This document shows, piece after piece, positions 23,766 through 54,550 of a stretch of 64,000 bases of DNA (position 1 is its first letter; every line of letters begins with the position of its first letter). The position numbers and the translations under genes are program-made. The notes under the pieces were generated by a model. That model ran no database searches. It had not been told where the DNA came from and worked only from the letters and a program-made list of their open reading frames with translations. The DNA comes from Flavobacterium pectinovorum (lineage in GTDB: Bacteria; Bacteroidota; Bacteroidia; Flavobacteriales; Flavobacteriaceae), in contig NZ_RCZH01000001.1 of assembly GCF_006438875.1 (NCBI RefSeq), positions 310,825 through 374,824 on the forward strand, written 5' to 3'.

Positions 23766-25070
23766 TTACATCATTTTCCCTTCTTTCGCATATTCTTTTT
23801 TAATTCCCTGAAGTAAATGATTGAGATTGATATTTTCATTTTCGTCTTCCAAAGTTCTCAAACACGCATATTGAATAATGTTGACAATATTGGCGCCGGT
23901 AATATCGTATTTTTTCGAAAGTTCATTAAGATTTACATCTTCGGCAATTCTAATTCCTTTTGGCAGATTATTTTGCCAAAGCTGTAAACGTTCACCATGA
24001 GAAGGAACTTCAAACTCAATTATAGATTGAAATCTTCGGGTGAAAGCCGTATCAATATTCGTTTTGAAATTAGAAGCCAGAATAACCAATCCCGGATGAT
24101 TTTCGATACGCTGCAATAAATACGAAACTTCCTGATTGGCGTATTTATCATGTGCATCTCGTACATTGGTTCTTTTCCCGAAAACCGCATCGGCTTCATC
24201 AAAAAACAGAATCCATTCTTTATCCGCCGCTTTGTCAAAAAGAGAAGAAAGATTTTTTTCGGTTTCACCAATATATTTCGAAATCACCATAGACAAATCA
24301 ATTCGGTACACATCTCTTTTAGTGTATTTTCCCAAAAGAGAAGCCGTAAGCGTTTTTCCCGTTCCCGGAGCGCCATAAAACATGACTCTGAAACCGGGTT
24401 TTATTTTCGATTTCATATCCCATTCGTGAAGTAAAATCTCATTGAATTTAAGCCAGGTTTCTATTTCTTTAATTTGATTTAAAGTATTGGAATTTAGCAC
24501 CAAATCATCCCAATCTAATCCGGTTTCGATTAATTGTGCAGGGAAAATGCTGCTAAGCTGCGGTTTCAGAATTTTTCCGGTAATGAATTTTTCGATGTAT
24601 TCGTCTTCCAAAATCAATAAACCACTTAGTTTAGGTTCACCATTTGGAACAGATTCGATTTTGATAATTCCTTTCTGATACAAAAAAGAATAATTATGCA
24701 GGTAATTGTAGAACGAAATTCGGTTTTCGAGATCGTTTCCAGCAATTAAGAATTGTGCTGTTTCACCAGTTGGCAAAATTCCGCGATGGTTTTTTGTTTT
24801 TATTCCGCCAAACTCCGGTAATTCGCCGCCATTCGGCAAATATTCCGCAATAATCGAACTCAGAAAATCAGGCCTTACGTGCGGAACAAGAGCTAATCCT
24901 AATAAAAGTGTATCTATTTCCGTCAGCTTATTTTCGATAATGAATTCGTTTATAAATCCATCGGAATCCAGTTGATCTAAAACGGGTTTCTCGGTTGGAT
25001 TTTCGGCTTGAAAAAGAGAATCAAGCTGAAATACGAATTGGTCTTTTAGATAATTAAATACGTTTTTCAT
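23766..25070 (-). CDS. eCIS AAA+ ATPase (Afp15/Pvc15-like)
   Basis: A 434-aa protein. A helical N-terminal region of about 200 residues precedes a classical AAA+ core with Walker A GAPGTGKT (233-240), Walker B WILFFDEAD (286-294), sensor-1 Asn 334 (LASNFK) and two Arg after FT (345-346). In Afp/PVC-type injection systems an ATPase of this kind is encoded at the end of the cluster and is needed for particle assembly or cargo loading, probably in the cytosol. It is the last gene of the operon, 3 nt after the amidase gene. The family is clear; the detailed role is taken from relatives. Confidence 0.88.
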   Translation of the reverse strand: MKNVFNYLKDQFVFQLDSLFQAENPTEKPVLDQLDSDGFINEFIIENKLTEIDTLLLGLALVPHVRPDFLSSIIAEYLPNGGELPEFGGIKTKNHRGILPTGETAQFLIAGNDLENRISFYNYLHNYSFLYQKGIIKIESVPNGEPKLSGLLILEDEYIEKFITGKILKPQLSSIFPAQLIETGLDWDDLVLNSNTLNQIKEIETWLKFNEILLHEWDMKSKIKPGFRVMFYGAPGTGKTLTASLLGKYTKRDVYRIDLSMVISKYIGETEKNLSSLFDKAADKEWILFFDEADAVFGKRTNVRDAHDKYANQEVSYLLQRIENHPGLVILASNFKTNIDTAFTRRFQSIIEFEVPSHGERLQLWQNNLPKGIRIAEDVNLNELSKKYDITGANIVNIIQYACLRTLEDENENINLNHLLQGIKKEYAKEGKMM

Positions 25071-25073
25071 TTT

Positions 25074-25895
25074 TTATACGACTAATGATTCGATGGAGAA
25101 AAAGTCTATTTTTGATTGTTTAAAGTTTCTGATTCTGTTCATGACCGCGTTTCCGTTATGAGAACCATCAGAATTTGTGTTTCCTTCGATCGTTTCAATA
25201 ATATCACCATGAATCGCAGTTACAATTCCCGTATGAATCCAATCGTTTGGTGTTTTTTGAAGCAGAAATATATCTGCCGGTTTTATCAAAGCCGGATTCG
25301 TTCTTGCTGCCTGAAAACGGGTCAATATTTTTTTCTGAATTCCGGTCACACCAACAGTATCGCAACTGTAAGTTAACGGCATCAGGGTTTTGAAGTTTTT
25401 TCCCTGAATCGAAGCCGCCTGATCAATAATTGCCTCAACAAATCCCATGCACCAAAACCAGTCAGTTCCTTCATTTCCATCCATATAACTGCGAACCCAC
25501 GGACCTGTATTACTTTGATTGTGGATTACCAGTTCAAAAGGATGATTTTTAAGATGGTTTTTGGCTGTATTTAATATTAAATCTCTCAAATTTCCGCCAG
25601 ATACAGAATCTTCAAAAGCTTTTTTGAGAGGCGACGCGAGTATATCAAATACTTTTTGATCTACAGTTCCATTTTGTGGTAAATTGTTGAATTTTTGAAA
25701 ATTAAGAACTGCTTTTTCCGTTGCTGGTCCAAAATCGCCATCAATACCCGTTGCGGTTCCTGAGCTTGAATTTTGCATCGCAAATAAATTAAGCCACGAC
25801 TGAATTTTTTCAATGTCTTTCTTGTTATTATTTGCTCCATTTCTTTGTTGTGTTGCTTTGATAGCCAACTCTTTTTGGTAGAATGTTTTTTGCAT
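25074..25895 (-). CDS. Peptidoglycan-binding, CHAP/NlpC-like cysteine amidase
   Basis: A 273-aa protein. Residues about 25-90 form a PG_binding_1 domain (IQSWLNLFAMQ...GIDGDFGPATEKAVLNFQKFNNLPQNGTVD). Residues about 105-273 form a cysteine-hydrolase domain with Cys 149 (WFWCMGFVEAI), His 221 (WIHTGIVTAI) and an EGNTNSDG segment at 237-244, a CHAP/NlpC-like catalytic arrangement. No signal peptide is visible. It could cut peptidoglycan for particle release by lysis, or be a cargo enzyme. It sits between the large eCIS-core gene and the ATPase. Confidence 0.78.
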   Translation of the reverse strand: MQKTFYQKELAIKATQQRNGANNNKKDIEKIQSWLNLFAMQNSSSGTATGIDGDFGPATEKAVLNFQKFNNLPQNGTVDQKVFDILASPLKKAFEDSVSGGNLRDLILNTAKNHLKNHPFELVIHNQSNTGPWVRSYMDGNEGTDWFWCMGFVEAIIDQAASIQGKNFKTLMPLTYSCDTVGVTGIQKKILTRFQAARTNPALIKPADIFLLQKTPNDWIHTGIVTAIHGDIIETIEGNTNSDGSHNGNAVMNRIRNFKQSKIDFFSIESLVV

Positions 25896-25974
25896 GACTA
25901 AGATTTTAAGTTTATTAAAATTTCATTGTTTCTTGTTTTTTTACAATTTTTTAAGTCAAAGAGAATCTTCGTTA

Positions 25975-28900
25975 TTATCTTCTTCGTCCTCCTCGGCCAT
26001 TTCCATCATCGTCTTCGTCAGATCTTTCTCTTCGATTTCTTTTATCAGCGTCTATTGATCTGCTTTCTGCCCTTTGTGATTTTTCATTTTCTCCTCTTCT
26101 TGTATGAGTTTGAGCGTCAAGTACCGCAACTTCTCCCTTATATTCATAATGAAATTCGTGTCCGGCTACAGAACATGGAATTCTTACAATCCTTACTCTT
26201 GTAATTCTGTTTCCTCCAGCCATAACATTGTGGTATGAGGTAGACATTTCGTATTCCAGGTTCCAACCTCCCTCTTGTGTTACTCTGGTTGCACCTGGGT
26301 TGTCATTTTTTACACGTGTATATAAATCTTCCAAAGTGGTATATTGGTTAGGTTCTAATGTACACGCTTGGGCATCTGCTTTTAGTGGACCTCCCGGTTC
26401 TTCTGCTTTTTGAATAATATTATAATTCCATTTAGTTCCACCATCAACTACCTGAATTGAATTTACTGTTGTATTGTTTCGTGTAGCGACAGTTTGCGCG
26501 ACAGTTTGTGCGTCTTCTCTTTTAATGCCGCCATTTGTTAAATGAGTTTGTTCTTCCTGATGAATGTTTTGTCTCACAGCCGTCAGATTGTCTGCAGCGC
26601 CGTTGCCCATCAATCTGTCCAACATATCCATTCCAGTGTCTACCGCTTTATTTACCAGCCAAGTCAGTGCCTCATCAACCATAAGGCGGACAGAAACAAT
26701 CATTTCTCCAATTCGTGCGCCAATTCCGGAAAGACCAACCTGATTGGCAAGGAAACCAATTACAATTGGCATCGCTTGTCCCATTGTATTTTCGAGATAA
26801 TTGGCTGCTGTAGCTACATTTCCTTTTGCGATATCGGCAACACCGTTGACAAAGGAGTTGACTACTTCGAGCATTTCGCGTAAGTATTTTATAAAACTCT
26901 GAATAGCGCTGTACAAAGCAATTGCGCCATTGATTACCGCCATAATTCCCGTTGGGTCCAGCATACTTAAGAGTCTGGCGGTTATGCGGTTGACGATGCG
27001 CTCCATGATAAAGTTTTTCACCGCATCAAGAACCGTATTCCATAAATTACTGAGTTGTTCCTGAATTTTATCCCAAATAGCAGCCATTCCGCGTTCCTGA
27101 ACATCTTTTATGAATGTCCAAATACCTTCAAGCGTATTAATCATACTGCGTATTTTAGCGACTCTTGCCGGACCAATTCTAGGATGTGCCGCTAGTTTCT
27201 CCCAAATTTTTTCCATTGATATTCCAAGGACTTCAAGTACCCAGGCAATTACGCCTCGCAAAGAGAAATCAGTCAAAACAGGAATATTGGCGTCTTTCAA
27301 TTCGCTCATTAACCAGCCGGTAACGCCGTTGATTAAATGCGTAACAATATTGTCAAAGAATTGAACAAATCCTTGTTTAATGGCGCGTAATATATTTTTA
27401 AGGAAACCAATAGGATCTTTTTTAATGTCGTCAATTGCCTGCATCGCACGAGTTATGATGTTCCCGATCAAGTCGAATGGGAAATTCATAATCTCGAGAA
27501 TAGCTATAATAACAATCCTTACAATTTCTGCTACGAAAGCAATTAACCGTCCGATTGGTTCTCCAAATTTTTCGATAATTCGGATAAAAGCATCAAGAGG
27601 ATGAATTAGATCATCGATCGTAAACGAATCCCAGATATCAGTAAAGAGCTGAATAATAGCCGCCGGAGTCATATTTAAAGTTGCAACTGCAGCTTCAATT
27701 TCGCCAACGATTCGGGCAATTGCACCCGTTTCAACCATTTGAGCATATTGTTCTTCGCCGCCGTCCATCAGACTCATAAAACCTCTAATAAGATTTGGAA
27801 CAGATCTTGGAACATTTTCATTCGTAAAAGGATCGCGTCCTATAATTACTTTTATTAAGGAATAACCTCGAACTGTTGCGGCTTGCGAAGACAGATATCC
27901 TAATAAGGATTCTTTGACAAGTTCCAGAACTTTGAGTGCCACGCCTGAAGCAAAATCCCAAACGCGTTGCAGGAATCCGCCAGCCTGAGCAGCAAGTGCC
28001 GAAAGATTATCAGCAATATTCATTAAATTTGAAGGCTGAATTGCATCCCACGCCGAAGTAATAAGTCCTCGAAGTTCGCCTAATAACGAAGTAAAAGTTC
28101 CGACTTGCGTGTCAAGCCAATCGGCAGTTTTTTGCAGCGTGCCTTTTTCACGCATTTGCTCAAGCTCGGTTTCTTTTCCTATCAGAATAAGGAAATCTGC
28201 CAGTATTTCAACCGTCGTTGCGTTAACTGCTTCATCGCGTAACGGATCGTATTTGATTATTTTTTTGATTAACGCCCAAGCTTTATTTTCTGCCAATATT
28301 GGTTCGGCAACACCAATCAGTGCTTCTTTTATCCAGGTAATTACCTGATCTACAGTTGCAGTTACAAAAGAAGTTATTCTGTTAACTAATTCTTCAAATT
28401 TTTCAGTAACTAAATCAATGATGTCGGTGTAAGGAAAAGATACTTTGTCCCAAACGTCTTCCACCATATCCATAATACTATCGATCGTTAATCCCAGTTC
28501 TCCCAGTTTTCCTTCGACCCAATCAAAAACCTGTTGTAATATTCCGTATTCCTGAAGTTTATCGAATATGGCTGTACCAAAAGGAATCAATCCCATTAAT
28601 CCTTCTACAAGATTAATTGGAGTTCGTTCTACATCAACTTCACGCAATGGATCGTAACCAATAATAACGGTAAAAAGGGTATAACCCGGAATATGTCGTG
28701 CTTGATTAATAATCCAATCCGGAACTAAATCGAGAAATGAACCCTGAATCATCTCGGGAGCAGGGGATATGTTATTTTCAGGTTTTTTTCTAATGGATGC
28801 TCCCTGCTGAACCGTATGTGTTAATTCGTGGGCGAGTAAATGCTTGCCTGATTGTGAATTTGGATTGTATTTTCCTTCGTTAAAATAAATGTTATTTCCG

Positions 28901-29868
28901 GTTGCAAAAGCCTGCGCGCCCAATTGCTTGTTCATTTGAACAGCAGTTGAATTATTGTGAATGCGCACATTGCTGAAATCGGCTCCAAAACCAGATTCCA
29001 TTTCGGTTTTTACTTTTCCGGATAGGGGAGAACCGCCGCCTTTACTACTATTTAAATTGCTTTCAAGATTAGAAGTGTCAGACGGATTTGCATCTGCACT
29101 CGCGCTCATCTGAAGTTCGTTTTCGTCTTCTTTGGTCTGAATTTCCTCTTCTTCTTTGGCTTGAATTTCTTTTTCCGCTTTTGGCTGAATTACCGGTTTT
29201 ATAGTTGCAGTAATTTTATTGCTTTCCGATTTAGATTCTGCAACTATTGGAGTTATAGGCTCGACTACAGGTTTCTTTTGAACTTCAGTCTTTTTTTCGT
29301 CTTTGGGTTTTTCGTCTTTTTTCGGAAGCTCTTCTTCCGGTTTAGTTTGAAGTAGCGGTTTTTGTAAAACTGCTTTTGCAGCAGGAGTTTCTGCTTTTTT
29401 TATTTCTTTTTTAGGTGGAATCGGCGTTTCTTTTTTCTGAACTTTATCTTCAGTTTTATTCTGAATTACTGTTTTTGGTTTAGAAAAATCTTTGCTGATT
29501 TCGCGCTTTTCAGTTTTTTTGGAATCGAGTTTATTTTGGATTGAATCCTCTTTTAACTGCACAACCGGAGTGATGGTTTCGGCAACTGTTTTTTGCTGAA
29601 TTTCCTTGTTTTGCTCTTCTTGTTTTTGAACATCTTCTGCCAGTTTCTTTTGGACTACAGGCGAAGGCGAAAAGAACGGATCTGTGTTTGGATTTTGTTT
29701 TTTGGCAACAACCTGATCTGCTGATCTGTCGGCTTCAACTTCAAATTTATCGTTAGATTTTCCGATATTTAATTTTGCCTGAACGCCAAAAAAAGATTCC
29801 TGCCCCTTGTCCTGATGAGACGAGGAGTGCGAAGAACTTGCTTTTGTTTTTGGTGAAAAGGCTGGCAT
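25975..29868 (-). CDS. eCIS-core (DUF4157) protein, 1297 aa, with three internal repeats
   Basis: The N-terminus (FFGVQAKLNIGKSNDKFEVEADRSADQVV) and a Lys/Glu/Pro-rich linker (60-260, many QKK/IQ motifs) precede the DUF4157/eCIS-core domain (about 275-360). This domain has GGGSPLSGKVKTEMESGFGADFSNVRIH and a zinc-peptidase-like HELTH at 347-351. From about 395 come three repeats of about 136 residues, each opening with a GYxLIxVIIGxDP-like motif (395, 530, 668), then a long helical region. The C-terminus ends in a very basic tail (RNRRERSDEDDDGNGRGGRRR). DUF4157 proteins are typical cargo or cargo-linked proteins of eCIS particles. Role as an effector is inference; the C-terminal domain is not recognised. 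Confidence 0.8.
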   Translation of the reverse strand: MPAFSPKTKASSSHSSSHQDKGQESFFGVQAKLNIGKSNDKFEVEADRSADQVVAKKQNPNTDPFFSPSPVVQKKLAEDVQKQEEQNKEIQQKTVAETITPVVQLKEDSIQNKLDSKKTEKREISKDFSKPKTVIQNKTEDKVQKKETPIPPKKEIKKAETPAAKAVLQKPLLQTKPEEELPKKDEKPKDEKKTEVQKKPVVEPITPIVAESKSESNKITATIKPVIQPKAEKEIQAKEEEEIQTKEDENELQMSASADANPSDTSNLESNLNSSKGGGSPLSGKVKTEMESGFGADFSNVRIHNNSTAVQMNKQLGAQAFATGNNIYFNEGKYNPNSQSGKHLLAHELTHTVQQGASIRKKPENNISPAPEMIQGSFLDLVPDWIINQARHIPGYTLFTVIIGYDPLREVDVERTPINLVEGLMGLIPFGTAIFDKLQEYGILQQVFDWVEGKLGELGLTIDSIMDMVEDVWDKVSFPYTDIIDLVTEKFEELVNRITSFVTATVDQVITWIKEALIGVAEPILAENKAWALIKKIIKYDPLRDEAVNATTVEILADFLILIGKETELEQMREKGTLQKTADWLDTQVGTFTSLLGELRGLITSAWDAIQPSNLMNIADNLSALAAQAGGFLQRVWDFASGVALKVLELVKESLLGYLSSQAATVRGYSLIKVIIGRDPFTNENVPRSVPNLIRGFMSLMDGGEEQYAQMVETGAIARIVGEIEAAVATLNMTPAAIIQLFTDIWDSFTIDDLIHPLDAFIRIIEKFGEPIGRLIAFVAEIVRIVIIAILEIMNFPFDLIGNIITRAMQAIDDIKKDPIGFLKNILRAIKQGFVQFFDNIVTHLINGVTGWLMSELKDANIPVLTDFSLRGVIAWVLEVLGISMEKIWEKLAAHPRIGPARVAKIRSMINTLEGIWTFIKDVQERGMAAIWDKIQEQLSNLWNTVLDAVKNFIMERIVNRITARLLSMLDPTGIMAVINGAIALYSAIQSFIKYLREMLEVVNSFVNGVADIAKGNVATAANYLENTMGQAMPIVIGFLANQVGLSGIGARIGEMIVSVRLMVDEALTWLVNKAVDTGMDMLDRLMGNGAADNLTAVRQNIHQEEQTHLTNGGIKREDAQTVAQTVATRNNTTVNSIQVVDGGTKWNYNIIQKAEEPGGPLKADAQACTLEPNQYTTLEDLYTRVKNDNPGATRVTQEGGWNLEYEMSTSYHNVMAGGNRITRVRIVRIPCSVAGHEFHYEYKGEVAVLDAQTHTRRGENEKSQRAESRSIDADKRNRRERSDEDDDGNGRGGRRR

Positions 29869-29880: not shown

Positions 29881-30471
29881 TTAAATTGGAATTATATCTG
29901 TTTTTGGAATTTCATCAACTCCCATTCTTTTAAATTCTAAAAAAGTTTCTATGTCCTGATTGCTTTCAGAATAAAAAACGATCCACAATCCATCTTTAAA
30001 AACCGTCGTATTATTCAAAGACAATACATACGGAATCATACTATTTGTTTGAACTAAAACAGATTCTGTTTTTTTAGAATCAAGCTTTAGTTTTATGTTT
30101 GCAATCGATTTGTTACTTTCCTGGTGTATCTTATTTTTAAAGGCTACTAAATCTTCTTTATCATGAAAAACAAGTATCAGAATATCTTCTTTTAAAACAT
30201 TGTCATTCGTAGGATTGATGTATACTTTTTTTAAACTCGGAAAAACCGATAATACGCCATCCACTCTTAAACATTTTGATACAGATGAATCTGCTTTTAC
30301 AGACAAAATATTTGATGTGTTCTGATAAATTGTATCACATCCTGAAAAACAGCAACACGTGAAACAGAAAGCGGTTATGAATTCCAAAGTTTTAAATTTC
30401 AATTGATTGGCCCGTTTTAAAATTGGAATTTGGGATTTATTCTTATTGGGATTTAGAATTGATACTTTCAT
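29881..30471 (-). CDS. Putative lipoprotein between the two eCIS-core genes
   Basis: A 196-aa protein whose hydrophobic stretch ends in a lipobox-like FSGC near residue 45, preceded by a long basic segment. A downstream TTG start may be used instead. The remainder is a soluble beta/alpha region with no known motif. It lies 12 nt after the 762-aa gene and 12 nt before the 1297-aa gene, so it is co-transcribed with both. A lipoprotein in this position could be an immunity-like or anchoring partner, which is inference only. Confidence 0.6.
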   Translation of the reverse strand: MKVSILNPNKNKSQIPILKRANQLKFKTLEFITAFCFTCCCFSGCDTIYQNTSNILSVKADSSVSKCLRVDGVLSVFPSLKKVYINPTNDNVLKEDILILVFHDKEDLVAFKNKIHQESNKSIANIKLKLDSKKTESVLVQTNSMIPYVLSLNNTTVFKDGLWIVFYSESNQDIETFLEFKRMGVDEIPKTDIIPI

Positions 30472-30483: not shown

Positions 30484-32772
30484 TTAAAATTTACCGGCTC
30501 TCATTTCATTTACAAAAGGCTGCAGAGCGCCTGCAGAAGCATGTCCGCCTCCGCCATTTAGAGCTCTGTAATAATCCTCGCATATTGAGGCTTGCTGTTC
30601 TCTGTTGAATTCATTAAAATGCTGATGTTTAAATGTTCCATCCGTATTGACATATCCATAACCTTCGCCAAAAGCTTGTGCATGAATTGCTTGCGCCATA
30701 TATACAGATCCTGCGTGCTCATATTGCGCTACATGCGATAATTCGTGAACCATTGTGGCGGTATCTTCTCCCGGTGCAGCATGAATTATATGTGCCGTTG
30801 TTACTGCTCTGTAACCTCCTCCGGAAAAATATCCTCCGATAAAAGCAACCAGAGATCCTTCGTCTACATATACCTGATCATACGGAATCATTCCCGCGGG
30901 ATGTACTTGTAGAGAGGCGCTTATTTCTACATCTGTTAATTTTCTCATTCTAAAAATCAGCCCCCATAAAAGTTGTAATATTTCGAAGATTCCAAGTAAA
31001 TCTATAATGTATAATAACATTTTTCCTGCCCAGGTAAGTCCGCCCAAAACACCATCCCAGATCCAGGAAGCAAAACCTTTAATTCCTTGCCAAGCCCAGA
31101 TTGCTGCACCCACGACACCATCCCATCCCCATTTTGCAAATCCGGAAATACCTTTCCAGACCCAACCCAAAGTTCCTGTTAAGGCATTCCAGAGTTTAGA
31201 CAAGCTTGGAGCATTGACAAAATCTACTGCCCAGTCATATCCGGCAACTACACCCTCTAATAACCAATTTGCTGCTCCTGTTATACCACTTCCTAACCAG
31301 CCAAAAACACCTTTGACGCCTTGCCATAAATGTCCCGCTGCGCCACTTAATCCGTCCCAAGCCCAGCCTAAGGCACCTACTATTCCGTCCCAACCATGAA
31401 CAATTATTCTCCATAATCTGGATGGAATATTAGAAATGAATGACCAGACATTGTTGCCTAATAAACATAGTTTGTCCCACAAATAAGTTCCTATAACTTT
31501 GATGATATCCCACGCTTTACTTCCAAACCATTTGATTCCGTCCCAAACATAAGATGCAGCACCGGACAACCAATCAAGCGCATCGCTGCCTAATGATTTC
31601 AGACCTTCCCATGCAGAAGAAGCGGCATCTCCAAGAAATGTAGTTGCAGTATCCCAAGCCGAACTTAAACCGCTTGCAACACTTGAGGCGGCGTCAGAAA
31701 CTGCTCCTGTCGCAGCATCCCAACCTTCGCTTACTGTATCTGCAACACTTGACGCCGCATCAGAAACTGCTCCCGTTGCAGCATCCCAGCCATCGCTTAC
31801 GGTATCTGTTGCGCTGTCCCAGGCATCGCCAAGCCAGCTTCGTTGTATTTGAGGCTGTTCTTTTTTTTGAATTGTAGAACTTTGTTGTACGGTATGCGTA
31901 AGTTCGTGTGCCAATAAATGCTTGCCTTGTTTGCTATTGGCATCATATTTTCCGGAATTAAAATAAATATCATTTCCGTTTGTAAAAGCCTGAGCACCTA
32001 AATCCTGACTCATTTGTGTGGCATTATTATCGGTATGGATGCGAACCTGACTGAAATCAGTTCCAAAACCAGATTCCATTTCGCTTTTTACCCCTTTTGA
32101 AAGTGGAGATCCACCGCCTTTACTGCTTTTTAAATTACTCTCTAATTTGTTGCTGCTGGTGGTAGATTCGCTATTATTTGATTTTTTCTGAACAGGTTTC
32201 TTTTTATCTTCTTCTTTATCTTTGCCTTTTTTTTGTATTTTCTTTTTGTCGTCTTCTTTTTCTTTACCCTTTTTTTGGACTTTTTTATCTTCGTCTTTAT
32301 CAGACTTTTTTTGTATTTTCTTTTTGTCGTCCTCTTTTTCTTTACCCTTTTTCTGGACTTTTTTATCGTCGTCTTTATCGGCCTTTTTTTGAATTTTCTT
32401 TTTATCGTCCTCTTTTTCTTTACCCTTTTTCTGAACTTTTTTGTCCTCTTCTTTATCGGCTTTTTTCTGTATTTTCTTTTTCTCTTCTTCCTTTTCTTTG
32501 CCTTTTTTCTGAACCGGTTTTTCTTGTTCCAAATCTTGCTTTTGAACTGTTGATATAGTTTCCGAAATTGGTTTTCTCTGCACTCCGTCTTCTGCTTTGG
32601 ATTGTAATAATCCACCACCTTTTTGTTTGTTTACGACTTTATCGGCAACATTATCTGCTTCAACTTCATATTTGTCTCCTACGGTACCGGTCGTTAGTTT
32701 CTTTTGGATTTTTGGTCCAAAAAAAGGAGAAGAGGAGTGATTGTCCGGCTTTTTGTTTTCTAAAGTTCTCAT
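30484..32772 (-). CDS. eCIS-core (DUF4157) protein, 762 aa, with a second HExxH domain
   Basis: The N-terminus has the family signature (FFGPKIQKKL...DKYEVEADNVADKVV). Residues 85-197 are lysine-rich with three tandem 26-residue repeats. The DUF4157 domain (about 215-300) carries HELTH at 289-293. Residues 313-600 are Trp/Ala/Gly-rich with repeated AxWDGxxG-type motifs, which may be amphipathic or membrane-active. The C-terminal 150 residues hold a second zinc site, MVHELSHVAQYE (HExxH at 676-680), followed by HAQAFGEGYGY. Such proteins are cargo or scaffold components of Afp-like systems. It begins a tight four- to five-gene block that ends with the ATPase. Confidence 0.82.
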   Translation of the reverse strand: MRTLENKKPDNHSSSPFFGPKIQKKLTTGTVGDKYEVEADNVADKVVNKQKGGGLLQSKAEDGVQRKPISETISTVQKQDLEQEKPVQKKGKEKEEEKKKIQKKADKEEDKKVQKKGKEKEDDKKKIQKKADKDDDKKVQKKGKEKEDDKKKIQKKSDKDEDKKVQKKGKEKEDDKKKIQKKGKDKEEDKKKPVQKKSNNSESTTSSNKLESNLKSSKGGGSPLSKGVKSEMESGFGTDFSQVRIHTDNNATQMSQDLGAQAFTNGNDIYFNSGKYDANSKQGKHLLAHELTHTVQQSSTIQKKEQPQIQRSWLGDAWDSATDTVSDGWDAATGAVSDAASSVADTVSEGWDAATGAVSDAASSVASGLSSAWDTATTFLGDAASSAWEGLKSLGSDALDWLSGAASYVWDGIKWFGSKAWDIIKVIGTYLWDKLCLLGNNVWSFISNIPSRLWRIIVHGWDGIVGALGWAWDGLSGAAGHLWQGVKGVFGWLGSGITGAANWLLEGVVAGYDWAVDFVNAPSLSKLWNALTGTLGWVWKGISGFAKWGWDGVVGAAIWAWQGIKGFASWIWDGVLGGLTWAGKMLLYIIDLLGIFEILQLLWGLIFRMRKLTDVEISASLQVHPAGMIPYDQVYVDEGSLVAFIGGYFSGGGYRAVTTAHIIHAAPGEDTATMVHELSHVAQYEHAGSVYMAQAIHAQAFGEGYGYVNTDGTFKHQHFNEFNREQQASICEDYYRALNGGGGHASAGALQPFVNEMRAGKF
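32233..32466 (-). repeat. Three tandem 78-nt repeats inside the 762-aa gene
   Basis: Three in-frame 78-nt units encode 26-residue repeats (residues 103-180) of the pattern KKxDKxxDKKVQKKGKEKED plus DKKKIQ, followed by a partial unit. The near-identical DNA could change copy number by slippage or recombination without breaking the frame. Confidence 0.85.
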
Positions 32773-34646: not shown

Positions 34647-34657
34647 ATCTTTTAAAA

Positions 34658-46601: not shown

Positions 46602-46630
46602 AATTAATTCAAGTTTCTGGTCAATTATCG

Positions 46631-47053: not shown

Positions 47054-47062
47054 CTCATTTTA

Positions 47063-47189
47063 TGTCATTTCGACGAAGGAGAAATCCTCGTGAGTAACTC
47101 CGTTTCTAAAATTGCCAATCTTTGTCGAGCTTCTTGCGAGGATTTCGATCCCGAAGCCTCGGGATCGAAATGACAAACAGTGCGTTTAA
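47063..47189. repeat. TTTGTCATTTCGA inverted-repeat element, diverged copy 3
   Basis: Arms TGTCATTTCGA (47063-47073) and TCGAAATGACA (47165-47175) enclose AATCTTTGTCGAGCTTCTTGCGAGG, also seen in the repeats at 32801 and 32999, and a palindrome GATCCCGAAGCCTCGGGATC. The PAAR stop codon follows at 47191, so the hairpin probably terminates that transcript. Confidence 0.7.
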
Positions 47190-47485: not shown

Positions 47486-49231
47486 TTAATTTATTTGAAC
47501 AATACTTCCTTTTAAGACTGCGGCGGCACCAGACGATAATTCTGCGCCAGCGCTGCCTTCGGCTTTGAATTGTGCTGAGGCTTTTATCGAAACATTGGTT
47601 CCTTCGATTTTTATATCTCCGGTGGCTTTAAATTCGATGTTTCCGGCACTTTCCAGTTTTATGCCTTTGCTGTCTATGGTGATTACATTCGAATTTTCGT
47701 CTTCGATAACAATAACACCTTTATCTTCGTCGAGCGTGATTTTTTTCCCTGCCGGAGTTTCAATTCCGATTGACTTTTTTTCATCGTCAAACAAAACCTT
47801 CATCTCGCTTCGGGTTACAATTCCTTTTTGATGATTATCGTCAGAAGCAGTTATTGGAGCAGGTTTTCCGCTGCTGTGAAGCATTCCTAAAACGATCGCA
47901 TTATTGGGATCTTCATTTATAAATCCGATAATGACTTCATCTTCGATTTCAGGTCTGAAAAAAATACCTCTGTTTTCTCCCGCATCCGGCGTAGCCACAC
48001 GACACCAAATTCCCTGTTCTTCATTGTTGATGATTGGAATCTTGACTAAAATCCGATCTTCGCCATTTGGATCACTTTCGAGTTGTGTTACAATTCCGGT
48101 GTGAAGCCCTTTTATAGCGGCGATAATTCCCGAACCTGTTGGCGTATGAATGTCGTAGGTTTCAGAAAACCATTCGGGATTCAACCCAAATTGTGCGTCG
48201 ATTGTCCAGTTTCCTTCTGATATTTCATGAAAAACGCCTGTTATATAGGCTTTTCCGTTGAATCGGTCACCAACGCCTTCGAGTGTAATAATAGTGTTCG
48301 GTTTTACTGCGGGAATTCCCTGAAATTTGACTCTTCCGCGAATTTTTGATAATTGCTGAAAAAGTAATTTAGCATCTGCCCAATCCTGAAGTTCTACATC
48401 AGATATGTTTCCGCCATGACGTAATTCCAGATTTTCTAATTCGATCGTTTCCGCTAAATCTGATGCCGTTAAATTTCCATTTAAAGAAATACTTGGGTCT
48501 TTTGCTTCAATTTCGACCAATTCCTGATTGCTGTAATCCCAACTGTACGAAGACACTTTTGCAAATTGATTTCTCGCATCTATTTCAGCATCAAAGTCTA
48601 ATAAGCTTGAACCAAAAGTTACAGTTTCAACAGATTCTGCCGTTACATTTGGTTTACTGATGGTGATTTTACCATTTTCGACGAAACAAAGTTTACCGCT
48701 TGCCTGTGCTCTTGAAACTATAAAATCCCAATCTGAGGTATTGTACTGAACGAGTTCTTTGTGACTGAAATTAGTGGCTTCAACATCTTTTTCTAATCCG
48801 TAAGCATCGATAATTTCCTCAAAGGCTTCGCTGTCTTTTACATCATAGAAATATTTGCTTTTTCTGCCAATTGTCAGTTTTACAGCTTCGTCTTTGCATT
48901 CGATAATTAATAATGAGGCACCGCTTTTTATTTTGATCGAATGTTTGATGACAATTCCTTTGTAAATCGTTTCTTCGTCGTTGTGATAACCGGCTGTGAT
49001 TTCAATTTTTTTCCCCGGAATCAGCAAATCTTCATTGCTTAATTTAAAATCTCTTTCAGAAGCTTCTCCGTCTGTCAGAACAATTTGAGCCATAGGAATC
49101 CTGTTGACCTCATTTTGTACCACAATACTTTTTACCTGATAGGTTTTAGATAATTCTTCTCCTTCAATTAAAATTTTATGCGTTACTAAATCGGCACTTT
49201 GACTGGTTTGTATGACTCCGCTATTGTTCAT
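47486..49231 (-). CDS. VgrG-like spike protein (Afp8-like)
   Basis: A 581-aa protein with a gp27-like N-terminal half (about 15-360; HKILIEGEELSKTYQVKSIVVQNEVNRIPMAQIVLTDGEA) and a gp5-like OB segment (about 385-470, GIVTQLESDPNGEDRILVKIPIINNEEQGIWCRVATPDAGENRG). The C-terminal beta-helix spike is made of repeats (KKITLDEDKGVIVIEDENSNVITIDSKGIKLESAGNIEFKATGDIKIEG). Forms the trimeric spike under the tube. Its ATG shares one base with the TGA of the upstream gene (TGATG), coupling translation. Confidence 0.92.
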   Translation of the reverse strand: MNNSGVIQTSQSADLVTHKILIEGEELSKTYQVKSIVVQNEVNRIPMAQIVLTDGEASERDFKLSNEDLLIPGKKIEITAGYHNDEETIYKGIVIKHSIKIKSGASLLIIECKDEAVKLTIGRKSKYFYDVKDSEAFEEIIDAYGLEKDVEATNFSHKELVQYNTSDWDFIVSRAQASGKLCFVENGKITISKPNVTAESVETVTFGSSLLDFDAEIDARNQFAKVSSYSWDYSNQELVEIEAKDPSISLNGNLTASDLAETIELENLELRHGGNISDVELQDWADAKLLFQQLSKIRGRVKFQGIPAVKPNTIITLEGVGDRFNGKAYITGVFHEISEGNWTIDAQFGLNPEWFSETYDIHTPTGSGIIAAIKGLHTGIVTQLESDPNGEDRILVKIPIINNEEQGIWCRVATPDAGENRGIFFRPEIEDEVIIGFINEDPNNAIVLGMLHSSGKPAPITASDDNHQKGIVTRSEMKVLFDDEKKSIGIETPAGKKITLDEDKGVIVIEDENSNVITIDSKGIKLESAGNIEFKATGDIKIEGTNVSIKASAQFKAEGSAGAELSSGAAAVLKGSIVQIN

Positions 49232-49916: not shown

Positions 49917-50075
49917 TTACCGCTCTTTTTTACGTTCAATTACTTTCAATACCTGTTCTACACATTCGGCTACCGGATCTTCCCCTTTGCTTTTTGGAGC
50001 TTTGGGATCAGAATTTGGTTTAGAACCTTCATTCACGTTTATCTTGATGTGAAGCTCTTTTATTTCTATCGGCAT
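49917..50075 (-). CDS. DUF5908 small eCIS protein
   Basis: ATG at 50075 to TAA at 49917-49919, 52 aa, starting MPIEIKELHIKINV and ending VEQVLKVIERKKER. The MPIEIxEL start, short charged middle and C-terminal helix fit the DUF5908 family, found between tube and LysM genes in Bacteroidota eCIS clusters. It lies 2 nt from both neighbours, so it is clearly part of the operon. Function unknown; perhaps a chaperone or small baseplate part. Confidence 0.75.
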   Translation of the reverse strand: MPIEIKELHIKINVNEGSKPNSDPKAPKSKGEDPVAECVEQVLKVIERKKER

Positions 50076-50077: not shown

Positions 50078-50524
50078 CTAGCTTTTAATTAAAGTGAAAT
50101 AATTGTAAGTAAGTTCAAAGTTTTCGACAACGAGCTTACTTTCTTCAGCATTAAAATCCTCAACTGCCCATTTTACAGGGTAGGCGTGAACGACATTCCA
50201 GGAAATCAAGGGCTGATGTTCTTCGTCGAGCAATTTGATTGTCAGGTTGACGGGCTTAAATGCAAAGTTTTCGATCGCATCGCGGCACCAGTCTATAACT
50301 GCAGAATCAATCAGCATTCCCCTTTTTAAAGTCAGGTTTGGATATTTTGTCTTTACCGGAAGTTTGTGCTTGAATCTGTTTTCACCACCTTCGGCTATCT
50401 CTTCAGTTTCAATATCGACAGATAAACCGGAAACCGATTGAAACTGATGGTCTTTTGCCTGTGAGCCAAGACCTTCAAATTCAACTAAAAAGTGAAAACC
50501 GACAGGTGGATAATAGTTAGCCAT
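50078..50524 (-). CDS. Tube protein, gp19-like (second tube)
   Basis: A 148-aa protein of the T4-gp19-like tube family: YPPVGFHFLVEFEGLGSQAKDHQFQSVSGLSVDIETEEIAEGGENRFKHKLP is typical, and KYPNLTLKRGMLIDSAVIDWC and EESKLVVENFELTYNYF complete the fold. The usual eCIS arrangement has a major tube protein and a tube-initiator (Afp5-like); this one, lying after the major tube gene, is the likely initiator. It is 2 nt before the DUF5908 gene. Confidence 0.88.
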   Translation of the reverse strand: MANYYPPVGFHFLVEFEGLGSQAKDHQFQSVSGLSVDIETEEIAEGGENRFKHKLPVKTKYPNLTLKRGMLIDSAVIDWCRDAIENFAFKPVNLTIKLLDEEHQPLISWNVVHAYPVKWAVEDFNAEESKLVVENFELTYNYFTLIKS

Positions 50525-50526: not shown

Positions 50527-50955
50527 TTAATCATTTTGAATCGATAAACCTTCATGAACTAACTCCACTGATTCGATTGCTACTTCGTTTCCGTCGGCTT
50601 TTAAATCAGTCGACTGAACTTTGGTTGGCCATGCATTTTTTACTTTCCAGGTAATCACGGGTTCGTGTTCCTCGTTTAGTAATTTGATGGTAATGTCTCT
50701 TCTTTCGATAGTATTTAGTTTTACCGAATTCCACCAGGCATAATATTCATTATCGCTTTTAAAAGTGCCTCTTTTCATTGTAATGTTAGAGAACTTCTGC
50801 ATGCCGGGCATCTTGATCTTGCTGTACTCCGGACTTGCACCCTGACGGTACTCGATAACTTCGGTTTCTACATCTAATCCGGAGACTTCCGTAAAACCTA
50901 TTTTTGTTCCGCCCCAGTCAACTGAGAAATGAAACTTTGATAATGGATAACTCAT
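50527..50955 (-). CDS. Tube protein, gp19-like (major tube)
   Basis: A 142-aa protein, paralogous to the protein at 50078-50524. YPLSKFHFSVDWGGTKIGFTEVSGLDVETEVIEYRQGASPEYSKIKMPGMQKFSNITMKRGTF is the signature of the inner tube protein that stacks as hexamers inside the sheath. It follows the sheath gene by 29 nt, the normal gene order in Afp/PVC clusters. Called the major tube by position and length; not provable by eye. Confidence 0.9.
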   Translation of the reverse strand: MSYPLSKFHFSVDWGGTKIGFTEVSGLDVETEVIEYRQGASPEYSKIKMPGMQKFSNITMKRGTFKSDNEYYAWWNSVKLNTIERRDITIKLLNEEHEPVITWKVKNAWPTKVQSTDLKADGNEVAIESVELVHEGLSIQND

Positions 50956-50984: not shown

Positions 50985-53090
50985 TTAAGATTCCTGCATT
51001 TTGTGAGAGAAACGTAGGATGATAAACTCGGCCGGACGAACTACTGCCATTCCGATTTCAATTATCATTCGACCTTCCAGAATATCCAATGCCGACATGG
51101 TTTGTCCCAGTCCAATTCTAACATAAAAAGCCTGTTCCGGTTTTGCTCCCGCCAAAGCTCCGTTTCTCCATTGCAGAATTAAGAAATTCTCAATCATCGC
51201 TCTTACTCTTATCCAGGTATTGGCATCGTTAGGCTCAAATACAAATTGGTCAGTTGCTTTTTTGATGGATTCTTCTGCCATGTTAAAGAAGCGTCGAACG
51301 GGAACATAACGCCATTCGTTGTCATTACCCGCAAGGGTTCTTGATCCCCAAACCAAGGTTCCTTTTCCTGTAAAGCTTCTGATGGCGTTGATGGATTTAC
51401 CTGCAACAGTATCAACATTTAGATTATCCTGATCGCCATTTGTAATTTTCAGCGATGGTCTTACTACATAATTTATACCCACATTTGCCGGAGCTTTCCA
51501 AACACCTCTGTTAGAATCTACACGAGCATAAATTCCGGCTACGGCACTGCTTGGAGGCAATGTAAGAGGTAAGTTTGCAATTTCGATTTTAATGGCATTG
51601 TACGATTTGTTGTCCAAACCTTCAATATCACCAAGATAGCGTCCGTTCATTGCACCATTATTAACATCGGTAGTCGTAACATTGTTGATTTCGGTTTTTA
51701 TTGCGTCAACCAGCGTTACCATACTATCTGTTCCGCTTGAAAGATTGAATACATCAACCGTAATAGCCAAAGTATTGTCCGGCAAATTGATAATTGAATC
51801 CGGCGCGCTAAACGTAAGCAGCTTAGCAATCTCCGCAATTACGTTTGTAGTATTGGTTTTTACATTTTGCGCTATTTTCAGGTTGGTGTTGGAAGCTTTT
51901 AATTTGGCAGTCAAATCTTCAAGATTATCTCTGACTTTTTCGATTTTGTTATTTCCTTCAAATAAACCAACAAAAACATCTAATGCGGACTGAAGTGCGT
52001 CTCCTGCATTGGCAACTTCTTCTACAGAAGCTATCGCAGATTCTGCTGCATTTTGGATTTTATCTTTATCCGAAATCAAACTGTTCAGATCAGCCGTTAA
52101 TGTTTCCAAAATCGGAATAAAAGCAGTTGTTTTTGCTACAGTAAATGTTTCTGATCCTGGAACTGCATTGTTATATCCTGTTGCGCTGTCAATATATGTA
52201 AGCACATCGGCAACACTTCCTGAGATTAAATCGTCTACAGTATCTGCATCATCATCTGTTACTACAACAAGGTTTCCTACCGTTAGCGTTACGGTTGCCA
52301 AAGCATCTTCGACTTCGCCAAAAGCAGTTGATATTGCATCAGGAACGTTGGTTACGTGGTTGATCAAAATATCATCTTCGTTGTATCTGTAATCCAGAAT
52401 TGTATCCAGATAGGGATAATAAGCGGCACCGTATTTCAGGTAATCTTTCTCTAAGGAAATCTTATCTCTTAAGGCTTGCGAATCAACTCCAATATCTGTA
52501 GAAGTATAAGTGTCAAGAATCGTAAATCGATCTTGTAAATCGTGACATTGGATTAAAGCATTGGAATATAAAGCATAAAACTCATCTACACTTAGTGCTT
52601 TTGCATCCGGAAATAATAATAATGTTGGTTCGTCTTCTGCTTTCAACAAGTTCAATCCGGCATTTAAATCATTAAAAAGAACAGGATTTTCATTGCTGTT
52701 TACATCTTCATAATTTTTTACCGAAACGATATAACAAGGTCCGCCGCCATTTGCAAAATAAATTTGAAGTGCATAATACATTAAAAATGGTTTTGGAGTA
52801 GCTGGCTGATTCACCACAATGTTTCTTTCGGTTACTACATTATCCGTTACCACATCTGTCACATCTACCGAAATAGTGTCTTCAGGATATGCAAATCCAA
52901 AATACGTTTCATAATCCAGTAAAGAAGTAATTCGGGTAGGAACCCTGTCTAAATCGTTCTCGATTTTTTTAACAGCTTTTTCTGTATAGCCAATAAAAGC
53001 GGGAATCGCTGTCTCTACCTCGGCAATAGAAGGAGGGAACTTTACGATCTCCTCAATATACACACCGGGTGTTTTGTAAGTTGTTGCCAT
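50985..53090 (-). CDS. Contractile sheath protein with a large internal insertion
   Basis: A 701-aa protein. The N-terminus MATTYKTPGVYIEEIVKFPPSIAEVETAIPAFIGYTE and the C-terminus (WRYVPVRRFFNMAEESIKKATDQFVFEPND, then ALAGAKPEQAFYVRIGLGQTMSALDILEGRMIIEIGMAVVRPAEFIILRFSHK) are those of eCIS/T6SS-type sheath proteins. Between KYGAAYYPYLDT (about 230) and NLPLTLPPSSAVAGIYARVDSNRGVW (about 507) lie about 270 residues, rich in Ala, Thr, Asp and coiled-coil-like, longer than usual. A single sheath gene is present, unlike the three of Afp. Contraction of the sheath drives the tube. Confidence 0.94.
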   Translation of the reverse strand: MATTYKTPGVYIEEIVKFPPSIAEVETAIPAFIGYTEKAVKKIENDLDRVPTRITSLLDYETYFGFAYPEDTISVDVTDVVTDNVVTERNIVVNQPATPKPFLMYYALQIYFANGGGPCYIVSVKNYEDVNSNENPVLFNDLNAGLNLLKAEDEPTLLLFPDAKALSVDEFYALYSNALIQCHDLQDRFTILDTYTSTDIGVDSQALRDKISLEKDYLKYGAAYYPYLDTILDYRYNEDDILINHVTNVPDAISTAFGEVEDALATVTLTVGNLVVVTDDDADTVDDLISGSVADVLTYIDSATGYNNAVPGSETFTVAKTTAFIPILETLTADLNSLISDKDKIQNAAESAIASVEEVANAGDALQSALDVFVGLFEGNNKIEKVRDNLEDLTAKLKASNTNLKIAQNVKTNTTNVIAEIAKLLTFSAPDSIINLPDNTLAITVDVFNLSSGTDSMVTLVDAIKTEINNVTTTDVNNGAMNGRYLGDIEGLDNKSYNAIKIEIANLPLTLPPSSAVAGIYARVDSNRGVWKAPANVGINYVVRPSLKITNGDQDNLNVDTVAGKSINAIRSFTGKGTLVWGSRTLAGNDNEWRYVPVRRFFNMAEESIKKATDQFVFEPNDANTWIRVRAMIENFLILQWRNGALAGAKPEQAFYVRIGLGQTMSALDILEGRMIIEIGMAVVRPAEFIILRFSHKMQES

Positions 53091-53108
53091 AATTGATTGT
53101 TTTAATTA

Positions 53109-53951
53109 TTAAATAAATATTTCCGAATAATAATCACCATTATTTTTTGTTATTGATTTTACAGATGGATTAGGATATTGACTGTTCGCCGGTTCTGATG
53201 GGGAAAAGTCATTAACAGGATCAATTTCTACAAAACCCGAGTAGGTTAGGGGTTTTACTTTATTGGTTTCTATTGTGGTTTCTTCTTTTCTGTTGATGTA
53301 TTTCCAAAGCGTTTTTCGATTATCAAAGTGAATCTTGAAATTTGGACTTACTATTTTACCCATAGCATCCACAATATTTTTAGGATTGTTATCGCCTTTC
53401 ATCGTCAGGGATATAATCCCAAAAACGTCTTGTTTTTCTTGTGTATGAAGTTCCGATAAGAAATTGTTTGTTGTTGTTTCTGATATTAAATAATCATCGG
53501 AAATCAACAGATTATCATTGATTTTTGGAATGTATTTGAACGTTACAGGTTCTGTTGAAGGTTTTACATTGCTGAATAAAAACATTTGTTTCAGAACAAA
53601 ATCCAAATTGGTGTAATTCTCAAACTGATAATCGATTATGGAGACAATAAAATCCAGTTTCAAATCAGGCGGAACACTTATATATGGATCGGTTTCATCA
53701 TTTTCTTTTACTTTTATATATACTCGAAATCCTGTTTTGGTTGGTTTAAACGCCATTTTGTAGTTCTTTAACCGAATGTTGGTTTCTACAGTAGGCGTTA
53801 TGGTTGAAAAGGAATCGTCGTCGAAGTTTTGCAGCATTTTTTTCTTATCTGCTCCAGACATACCTGCATATGTATCTTCGCCGCTGTTCAGGAAATAATT
53901 GTGCAAAAATGTTACTTCAAATAACAATGTATATGTAATATTAAAACTCAT
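53109..53951 (-). CDS. Unknown eCIS cluster protein
   Basis: A 280-aa protein starting MSFNITYTLLFEVTFLHNYF. The sequence is mixed alpha/beta, without a signal peptide or a motif I recognise. It is coupled to the upstream Pvc16-like gene (ATGA overlap, 53948-53951) and ends 18 nt before the sheath gene, so it belongs to the first transcription block. Proteins of this position and size recur in Bacteroidota clusters. A role in sheath assembly or particle end capping is a guess. Confidence 0.6.
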   Translation of the reverse strand: MSFNITYTLLFEVTFLHNYFLNSGEDTYAGMSGADKKKMLQNFDDDSFSTITPTVETNIRLKNYKMAFKPTKTGFRVYIKVKENDETDPYISVPPDLKLDFIVSIIDYQFENYTNLDFVLKQMFLFSNVKPSTEPVTFKYIPKINDNLLISDDYLISETTTNNFLSELHTQEKQDVFGIISLTMKGDNNPKNIVDAMGKIVSPNFKIHFDNRKTLWKYINRKEETTIETNKVKPLTYSGFVEIDPVNDFSPSEPANSQYPNPSVKSITKNNGDYYSEIFI

Positions 53952-54550
53952 GATTGCTCTTTTGTTTTGGTTGTACCTCTGACTTTGCTGATTAGTTGTC
54001 CTTCGCCCTGAGCGATATTGCGCTCAATTTGTATCATGCTTACTTTGTATAATGCCGATGGAAATTGTTTGCCGCCCAATGTTCCCCAGATATAGTTTAA
54101 CTCTTCAAATGTGGGCGTATAAAGCTCAACCGAGAATCTGAAGTTGTCTACATTTTCCATTGCAACATTATTTCGGTTATAAATTGTGTTGGCTTGTGTG
54201 AAAAGCTTTTTACCCTGAAAAAACGCGATGATTTTTGAAATATCATTAAGCGAATTGATGTACTTATTTCTATTGGCGCTAAAAAGTAAATAGAGATTTA
54301 AATTGATGATGCTGTTTTTATAAATTGTTTTGGTGTTTTCGATAGTATGATTAGGAAAGTTTTTTAAAGTAGCTTCTTCGTCGAGATTGATTAAGGTAAG
54401 CGCAACTTTATCTTCTAAATTTCCCGATACGATTTCATTTTGTGATTCCAGTAAAGCAATATTTTCGGCCACAACCGTTTTATCTAAGCCGATTTCGTCG
54501 AGATAGTTGTTTACTTGTTCTGTAATTATTTGAATAATTTCAAAAATCAT
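53948..54550 (-). CDS. DUF4255 / Pvc16-like protein (tube-sheath terminator)
   Basis: A 200-aa protein. The pattern MIFEIIQIITEQVNNYLDEIG, the strand VALTLINLDEEATLKN and the segment IINLNLYLLFSANRNKYINSLNDISKIIAFFQGKKLFT are typical of DUF4255/Pvc16_N proteins. GGKQFPSALYKVSMIQIERN is the end of the fold. In Afp (Afp16) this protein caps the tube and sheath and fixes particle length. First gene of the eCIS cluster; its promoter must lie in the AT-rich region 54551-54713, but no clean TAnnTTTG box was found. Confidence 0.85.
   Translation of the reverse strand: MIFEIIQIITEQVNNYLDEIGLDKTVVAENIALLESQNEIVSGNLEDKVALTLINLDEEATLKNFPNHTIENTKTIYKNSIINLNLYLLFSANRNKYINSLNDISKIIAFFQGKKLFTQANTIYNRNNVAMENVDNFRFSVELYTPTFEELNYIWGTLGGKQFPSALYKVSMIQIERNIAQGEGQLISKVRGTTKTKEQS

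What the first reader, a model, noticed from the sequence alone, without database searches (positions are those of the whole stretch)
23766..54550. Complete minus-strand extracellular contractile injection system of about 31 kb
Sequence motifs show a DUF4255 cap, sheath, two tubes, DUF5908, LysM adaptor, VgrG, PAAR, gp25, two gpJ-like proteins, a tape-measure-type protein, two eCIS-core (DUF4157) proteins and an AAA+ ATPase in Afp/PVC-like order. There are no TssJ/L/M genes. Established knowledge: such loci make phage-tail-like particles that deliver cargo. The organism's target and cargo are unknown, and the accessory genes differ from the classic Afp/PVC set.
Basis: partly seen in the sequence, partly recalled or inferred. 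Interest (0 to 1): 0.75.

Follow-up and report, generated by a model that had tools for sequence, protein, structure and literature searches.

The report
Antibacterial injection particle with modifying enzymes
A bacterium, likely a Flavobacterium, carries a complete gene set for a phage-tail-like injection particle of the AlgoCIS kind, with two cargo genes likely aimed at other bacteria and an extra pair of genes, predicted to encode a nucleotide-transferring and a sugar-transferring enzyme, that would likely modify the particle and that sat together beside such particle genes at all 38 other places where the first of the pair was found.

The parts
53948..54550 (-). cap protein (Alg16-type, Pvc16_N/DUF4255)
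   Evidence: Pfam 1.4e-34; PDB 7adz cap protein 1.3e-60
53109..53951 (-). cap adaptor
   Evidence: PDB 7adz cap adaptor 7.4e-43, only match
50985..53090 (-). sheath, single gene
   Evidence: PDB 7adz sheath 2.1e-226
50527..50955 (-). inner tube protein
   Evidence: Pfam Phage_T4_gp19 7.8e-51
50078..50524 (-). second tube protein, likely tube initiator
   Evidence: Pfam Phage_T4_gp19 1.5e-44
49917..50075 (-). 52-aa plug (Alg6-type)
   Evidence: PDB 7aef inner protein 3e-9 over all 52 residues
49231..49914 (-). Alg7-type LysM tube protein
   Evidence: Pfam CIS_tube 1.4e-52; PDB 7aeb 1.2e-100
47486..49231 (-). VgrG-like spike (Alg8-type)
   Evidence: PDB 7aef 3.4e-249
47191..47481 (-). PAAR tip
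   Evidence: Pfam 1.8e-27
46191..46601 (-). gp25 baseplate (Alg9-type)
   Evidence: PDB 7aeb 2.2e-59
42403..45732 (-). Alg11-type baseplate protein
   Evidence: Pfam Baseplate_J 3.7e-8; PDB 7aeb 6.3e-245
39713..42415 (-). Alg12-type baseplate protein
   Evidence: PDB 7aeb Algo12 1.1e-284
36248..39700 (-). Alg19-type tail fibre, 1150 aa
   Evidence: PDB 9wt0 1.3e-97
34658..36247 (-). tape measure protein
   Evidence: Pfam CIS_TMP 1.9e-99
34080..34691 (-). predicted nucleotidyltransferase, eCIS-linked family; the more likely start is 34646 (188 aa), 11 nt after the tape-measure stop
33202..34125 (-). DUF6734, predicted GT-A glycosyltransferase; the more likely start is 34077 (291 aa), 2 nt after the preceding stop
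30484..32772 (-). cargo 1 (Cgo1-type), eCIS_core domain plus second HExxH in a C-terminal domain
   Evidence: Pfam eCIS_core 7.6e-33; HExxH at residues 289 and 676
29881..30471 (-). lipoprotein-like protein, candidate immunity partner of cargo 1
   Evidence: found in the same 3 of 298 genomes as the cargo-1 tail, adjacent each time; lipobox-like CFSGC by eye
25975..29868 (-). cargo 2 (Cgo2-type), conserved trunk to about residue 1050-1100 plus an exchangeable tail of an unclassified type
   Evidence: Pfam eCIS_core 7.5e-30; conservation profile; tail found in 4 other DUF4157 proteins at 61-65% over 90-95%
25074..25895 (-). peptidoglycan-binding / CHAP protein, likely a wall hydrolase
   Evidence: Pfam PG_binding_1 3e-12, CHAP 4e-4 below the cut-off
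23766..25070 (-). AAA+ ATPase (Afp15/Pvc15-type by position; that assignment is recalled)
   Evidence: Pfam AAA 8.4e-26

Best explanation
The block encodes a complete AlgoCIS-type contractile injection gene set whose particle is likely released and used to inject two DUF4157 cargo proteins into competing bacteria, and it includes a gene pair with predicted nucleotidyltransferase and glycosyltransferase folds that would likely place a sugar-based modification on a particle protein before release. Shown by sequence: the intact gene set; its match with AlgoCIS part by part; the fixed slot of the pair in relatives; the trunk-plus-exchangeable-tail build of cargo 2; co-variation of tail and downstream gene. 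Inferred: release, firing and bacterial target (by analogy with AlgoCIS, where Cgo1/Cgo2 fill the tube lumen and Alg19 fibres bind bacteria: PMC8894135, PMC13314943); cargo 1 acting in the target periplasm with the lipoprotein-like neighbour protecting the producer; the CHAP protein helping release or wall passage. For the pair: DUF6734 is predicted to glycosylate an acceptor, and the nucleotidyltransferase to add a nucleotide or phospho-group to that sugar or to the same acceptor. The most likely acceptor is a surface-exposed particle part such as the Alg19 fibre; this is untested.
For: Particle. Pair: 38 of 38 relatives found in about 85,000 genomes lie directly between tape measure and DUF6734; in 298 same-genus genomes all 19 carriers have it on the same contig within 9 kb of an Alg12 of 71% identity or more, and none of the 11 genomes whose best Alg12 is 49-52% has it; catalytic residues are invariant; folds; pairwise identity tracks Alg12 with r 0.88 and 0.95, against 0.79 and 0.59 for cargo 1 and 2; no cargo-type leader at either N-terminus (by eye). 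Of ten DUF6734 loci outside eCIS, five lie beside C39/VKOR-type and one beside LanC-like maturation genes, and one beside a phage-tail fibre gene, which suggests protein or peptide acceptors. Bacterial target: tail and downstream gene co-vary (41 shared pairs against a permutation mean of 3.6 and maximum of 17); toxin and immunity families among 42 tails and 36 ORFs (examples).
Against: No acceptor is known. The pair is dispensable: in G418 both genes are gone (a 48-aa DUF6734 remnant is left) and in G485 the nucleotidyltransferase is gone, while the other genes in the stretch read look intact; the fibre is not visibly different in either. AlgoCIS works without the pair, as far as locus-tag numbering tells (one tag between Cgo1 and alg19, PMC8894135; the tag itself is not discussed there). 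Foldseek alone gives the nucleotidyltransferase no match below E 1e-3. In one search every component, cargo included, exceeds all 500 permutations, and the nucleotidyltransferase (0.88) stands only a little above cargo 1 (0.79). Only 4 of 36 downstream ORFs appear to belong to a known immunity family (3 SMI1, 1 PoNi). The window's own cargo 2 tail has no Pfam match and no immunity gene behind it. The permutation test does not remove relatedness of the loci.
Confidence: 0.55

Rival explanations
1. The nucleotidyltransferase and DUF6734 are themselves injected effectors, placed in the cargo region between tape measure and DUF4157 genes.
Against: Both genes descend with the backbone (r 0.88 and 0.95 with Alg12) and show no tail swapping; no adjacent immunity gene; no DUF4157-type leader; tight coupling to the tape measure, with the repeat-filled gap lying on the cargo side in the window.
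Confidence: 0.2
2. The pair modifies the producer's own surface glycans so that sister particles cannot bind, like phage seroconversion glycosyltransferases.
Against: Six of the ten non-eCIS DUF6734 loci in the family sample lie beside C39/VKOR-type or LanC-like genes; cargo immunity genes would already offer self-protection; nothing at the eCIS loci links the pair to envelope genes.
Confidence: 0.2
3. The particle targets eukaryotes, as Afp and PVC do.
For: Four early-studied eCISs act between bacteria and invertebrate hosts (PMC8213781, abstract in a listing and passages).
Against: Immunity families downstream of toxin tails in some relatives; AlgoCIS fibres bind bacteria (PMC13314943, section 8).
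Confidence: 0.15

Closest known systems
AlgoCIS of Algoriphagus machipongonensis (PMC8894135, PMC13314943)
   Same: Cap, cap adaptor, sheath, plug, Alg7, spike, gp25, Alg11, Alg12 and Alg19-type fibre have AlgoCIS as best match; two DUF4157 cargo proteins, one with a second HExxH.
   Different: Extra nucleotidyltransferase-DUF6734 pair between tape measure and cargo; a lipoprotein-like gene between the cargo genes, where the AlgoCIS locus tags are consecutive; fibre of 1150 against 1443 residues.
Anabaena CIS (7b5h, 7b5i)
   Same: Best matches after the AlgoCIS entries in nine of ten searches; no match for the cap adaptor.
   Different: Lower score for each component; described as thylakoid-anchored (title of PMC8894136 in a listing).
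Afp / PVC
   Same: General eCIS plan.
   Different: Several sheath paralogues there (Afp2-4, Pvc2-4), one here; no Alg19 homologue there according to PMC8894135.
Polymorphic toxins (TANFOR/BaCT, PMC7073777; eCIS toxin-immunity pairs, PMC8213781)
   Same: Conserved trunk, exchangeable toxin tail, downstream gene; PMC7073777 reports DUF4157-BaCT fusions.
   Different: Here tied to one eCIS backbone and its position, with cassettes shared between two AlgoCIS clades.
Flavobacterium CIS noted in PMC12210884 (passage read)
   Same: A Flavobacterium CIS from fish-skin mucus with fibres resembling Alg19.
   Different: Also resembles Pvc13 there; the passages read name no enzyme pair.

Membership tests
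AlgoCIS-type eCIS (clade Ib) | cap adaptor and plug proteins | tested here: met
   7adz 7.4e-43; 7aef 3e-9
AlgoCIS-type eCIS (clade Ib) | large Alg11 baseplate protein and Alg12 | tested here: met
   6.3e-245 and 1.1e-284
AlgoCIS-type eCIS (clade Ib) | Alg19-type fibre | tested here: met
   9wt0 1.3e-97 in four stretches, the best over residues 2-366
AlgoCIS-type eCIS (clade Ib) | two DUF4157 proteins as tube-lumen cargo | tested here: inconclusive
   genes and domains present; loading in the tube needs particles
AlgoCIS-type eCIS (clade Ib) | release as free extracellular particles | not testable with these tools
   needs electron microscopy and fractionation
Type VI secretion system with IcmF/DotU membrane complex | TssM and TssL | tested here: not met
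   0 matches in the own genome, E. coli control positive
Afp/PVC subtype | several sheath paralogues | tested here: not met
   one sheath match among the 20 locus proteins scanned
GT-A glycosyltransferase (DUF6734) | GT-A fold with DxD | tested here: met
GT-A glycosyltransferase (DUF6734) | sugar transfer activity | not testable with these tools
   no enzyme assay
Nucleotidyltransferase superfamily | fold with GG and three carboxylates | tested here: met
Polymorphic toxin (cargo 2) | conserved trunk and exchangeable C-terminal toxin | tested here: met
   identity to the window 0.53-0.83 per 50 residues from 251 to 1050, 0.08-0.11 past 1150; toxin families in relatives; the window's own tail unclassified
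Polymorphic toxin (cargo 2) | adjacent immunity gene | tested here: not met
   in the window only 79 nt separate cargo 2 from the CHAP gene; in the set as a whole 36 of 41 cargo-2 genes with visible downstream DNA have a downstream ORF

The most novel reading that the evidence does not exclude
A sub-lineage of AlgoCIS particles carries its own maturation enzymes, a nucleotidyltransferase plus a GT8-like glycosyltransferase, that decorate the particle (probably the fibre tip) with a nucleotide- or phospho-modified sugar, making these the first contractile injection particles whose binding is set by a dedicated post-translational glycan.
Probability: 0.35. Interest if true: 0.78.

Novelty: new variant of a known kind. 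Interest (0 to 1): 0.5.

Why it matters
It ties an unnamed nucleotidyltransferase family and a domain of unknown function (DUF6734) to one class of injection particle, gives both a testable enzymatic role, and suggests that such particles can be chemically matured. It also bears on a stated puzzle, that antibacterial eCIS toxins mostly seem to lack immunity genes (PMC8213781): in this lineage 36 of 41 cargo-2 genes with visible downstream DNA are followed by a small gene whose type co-varies with the cargo tail, although only about 4 of the 36 belong to a named immunity family.

Tried and rejected
Phage tail or prophage: rejected; best matches are AlgoCIS, not phage, and the 10 flanking ORFs scanned, of the 22 of 110 aa or more listed, show no phage family at E 1e-4. 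Promoter search upstream of 54550 with a recalled Bacteroidota-type pattern printed no site. PHROGs and PADLOC gave nothing for the pair; two DUF6734 proteins (the window's and L110's) have no relative in 50,697 phage records. The AAA protein's IetA match in PADLOC is read as a shared AAA domain. A link of the pair to fibre length was considered (about 1150 aa in most pair-carrying loci, 1333-1336 in two Tenacibaculum loci, 900-940 aa in the five of eleven 49-52% loci that I fetched), but G418 has a 1156-aa fibre and no pair, so length alone does not explain it. A fibre segment specific to pair-carrying loci was sought by eye in 50-residue blocks and not found (one locus each for the two exceptions). 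Intergenic repeats in the locus are copies of a genome-wide repeat (103 matches, many partial) and were set aside. The window's cargo-2 tail was searched in 5.8 billion proteins: 13 hits, itself included, of which four others cover 90-95%; no function follows. Limits of counts: the scan finds only relatives that hold one of two conserved peptide motifs; it may leave out the window's own genome. The co-variation test used 45 cargo-2 proteins of 1000 aa or more, of which 36 have a downstream ORF, four are cut off by the end of the fetched DNA (L012, L013, L038, second copy of L096) and five (window, L020, L025, L033, L035) have none; one search dropped the three tails that run off the DNA (L012, L013, L038; one search failed on L012), so one search scanned 42 tails. 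Absence from print: (openly licensed PMC papers only); 36, 37 and 82 returned no paper, and of the four listed two (PMC10598620, PMC9203015) were not opened and two were read in passages only.
Full report
What is there. The block 23766-54550 holds 21 minus-strand genes with intact frames. Pfam and structure searches give the parts of an eCIS. For all ten proteins that I compared with solved structures the top match is an AlgoCIS chain: cap adaptor 7.4e-43, Alg11 6.3e-245, Alg12 1.1e-284, Alg19 fibre 1.3e-97, sheath 2.1e-226, spike 3.4e-249, plug 3e-9, Alg7 1.2e-100, gp25 2.2e-59, cap 1.3e-60. Tubes, PAAR, tape measure, ATPase and the remaining genes were not compared. The genome has no IcmF or DotU match. 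So the locus belongs to the AlgoCIS type, classed Ib with MACs and T6SSiv in PMC8894135 (section 6 read, other passages by search).

Distribution. A scan of genome contigs with the nucleotidyltransferase alignment gave 38 distinct loci by record title: 28 Flavobacterium, 4 Aquimarina, 2 Tenacibaculum, 3 Flavobacteriaceae without a genus name and 1 Echinicola. In 38 of 38 it lies after the tape measure and before DUF6734, with Alg12 and Alg19 upstream, and in 21 of 38 a second DUF6734 copy follows. One locus (L037) ends before the cargo. In 249 Flavobacteriaceae genomes the tape-measure query matched 38, the nucleotidyltransferase 2 (both beside tape measure and DUF6734), and DUF6734 11. In 298 same-genus genomes 19 have the nucleotidyltransferase, 21 have an Alg12 of at least 71% identity (all 19 are among them, on the same contig within 9 kb) and 11 have a best Alg12 of 49-52%, none with the nucleotidyltransferase. 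The two exceptions look like secondary losses: G418 keeps a 48-residue DUF6734 remnant (E 1.7e-12), and G485 keeps DUF6734 and, weakly (E 1.6), a match to the first 14 residues of the lost protein. Pairwise identities of the two proteins follow those of Alg12 (r 0.88 and 0.95), below Alg19 and the tape measure (both 0.98) and above cargo 1 (0.79) and cargo 2 (0.59); all of them exceed 500 of 500 permutations, so this is a matter of degree. The pair behaves more like part of the machine than like swappable cargo.

What DUF6734 does elsewhere. I fetched all ten non-eCIS DUF6734 loci of the 249-genome sample. Five lie beside a protein with VKOR and C39 matches (L109, L112-L115; the C39 match is below the cut-off in L114 and L115), one beside a LanC-like gene (L108), one inside a phage-tail cluster next to a collar/Gp10-type fibre gene (L110), one, broken, near UDP-galactopyranose mutase and another glycosyltransferase (L117), and two in unclear settings (L111; L116 near a DUF6625 gene). 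This leans towards protein or peptide acceptors; it is not proof.

Cargo. Identity of cargo 2 to the window's copy, in blocks of 50 residues over 44 others, is 0.2-0.65 in the first 250 residues, 0.53-0.83 from 251 to 1050, 0.51 and 0.22 in the next two blocks and 0.08-0.11 after residue 1150. Of ten tails scanned, four are over the Pfam cut-off (Endonuclea_NS_2 in L096, L022, L042; Tox-REase-7 in L011), four have weaker toxin-type matches (L008, L010, L032, L025) and two have none of the kind (L007, L023); three more (window, L020, L033) gave nothing of use; L098 gave Ntox1 2.1e-6. Of 17 downstream ORFs scanned one by one, two are over the cut-off: SUKH_6 in L096 (6.6e-9) and PoNi in L098 (1.9e-27); SMI1 in L043 and L008 is below it. 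Scanning 42 complete tails and 36 downstream ORFs at E 1e-3 gave Endonuclea_NS_2 in 18 of 78, Tox-REase-7 in 3, Ntox1 in 1, a deaminase-type NAD1 in 1, SMI1_KNR4 in 3, SUKH_6 in 2 and PoNi in 1 (the tally does not name members, and one member may match several SUKH models). Comparing the last 150 residues with the downstream ORF over 36 loci, 41 locus pairs share both, 3 share only the tail, 10 only the ORF (all below 28.5% identity) and 576 neither; permutations gave a mean of 3.6 and a maximum of 17. Closely similar tail-ORF cassettes occur on different backbones: L042 and L095 (ORF 91%, tail 82%), L036 and L094 (80%, 91%). In the window the tail belongs to a small type seen in four other DUF4157 proteins, ends in an Arg/Gly-rich stretch and is followed after 79 nt by the CHAP gene, so no immunity gene is evident there.

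Cargo 1 has DUF4157 and a second HExxH, as reported for AlgoCIS Cgo1, whose expression inhibited E. coli independently of the HExxH motifs (PMC8894135, passages). The lipoprotein-like gene behind it and the cargo-1 tail each occur in 3 of 298 genomes, the same three and adjacent, on both Alg12 clades, and among the 38 named loci in L007-L010 only. The partner is less conserved (58%) than the tail (90%) between G000 and G126, which is unusual for a tight toxin-immunity fit and leaves a chaperone role open.

Mechanism. Committed reading: particles assemble in the cytoplasm, the AAA+ protein helps loading, the pair modifies an exposed particle part, the CHAP enzyme helps exit or wall passage, fibres bind a bacterial surface, and contraction drives the cargo in. 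Gene content, slot, folds (as models) and co-variation are shown here; every step of action is inferred, from AlgoCIS papers (PMC8894135; PMC13314943 section 8) or from fold.

Literature. Read in sections or passages: PMC8894135 (section 6 whole), PMC13314943 (outline, section 8), PMC8213781, PMC11297309, PMC12923769, PMC7073777 (outline and passages), PMC12210884. PMC8213781 notes that most antibacterial eCIS toxins lack evident immunity genes, reports some toxin-immunity pairs, and lists Flavobacterium among genera with more than one eCIS; PMC7073777 reports DUF4157-BaCT fusions; PMC12210884 mentions a Flavobacterium CIS with Alg19-like fibres. The general principle of polymorphic eCIS cargo is therefore not new. 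No paper found or 105 is known to me to describe the enzyme pair, with the limits told under Tried and rejected.

Searches were added: they turned by-eye statements on DUF6734 neighbours into Pfam results and gave whole-set counts of toxin and immunity families.

Noticed in passing
own genome G000:C49:175000-214000 (L099, L100): A second eCIS of another clade (Alg12-like 30% identity, 1231-aa tape measure) followed by several DUF4157 proteins in tandem, four over the family cut-off.
   Followed up: partly
window 32800-33158 and 46628-47073: Two pairs of 161-nt direct repeats (95% and 93%) with inverted-repeat arms around GTCATTTCGA; the second has 103 full or partial matches in the genome, so a REP-like dispersed repeat has settled inside the eCIS operon.
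   Followed up: partly
L110 (G229:C10:34000-43500): A DUF6734 gene inside a phage-tail-like cluster, next to a collar/Gp10-type fibre gene.
   Followed up: partly
L109, L113, L114, L115 (and L112 in part): Recurring trio of a VKOR/C39-type protein, DUF6734 and a 207-208 aa protein, which looks like an undescribed peptide-glycosylation cluster in Flavobacteriaceae.
   Followed up: partly
window 17759-18943: A LanC-like protein (3.4e-43) some 5 kb beyond the locus; its neighbours were not examined for a peptide.
   Followed up: no
window 45733-46190: A further set of A/T-rich direct repeats (78 and 51 nt, three copies each) between the gp25 and Alg11 genes.
   Followed up: no
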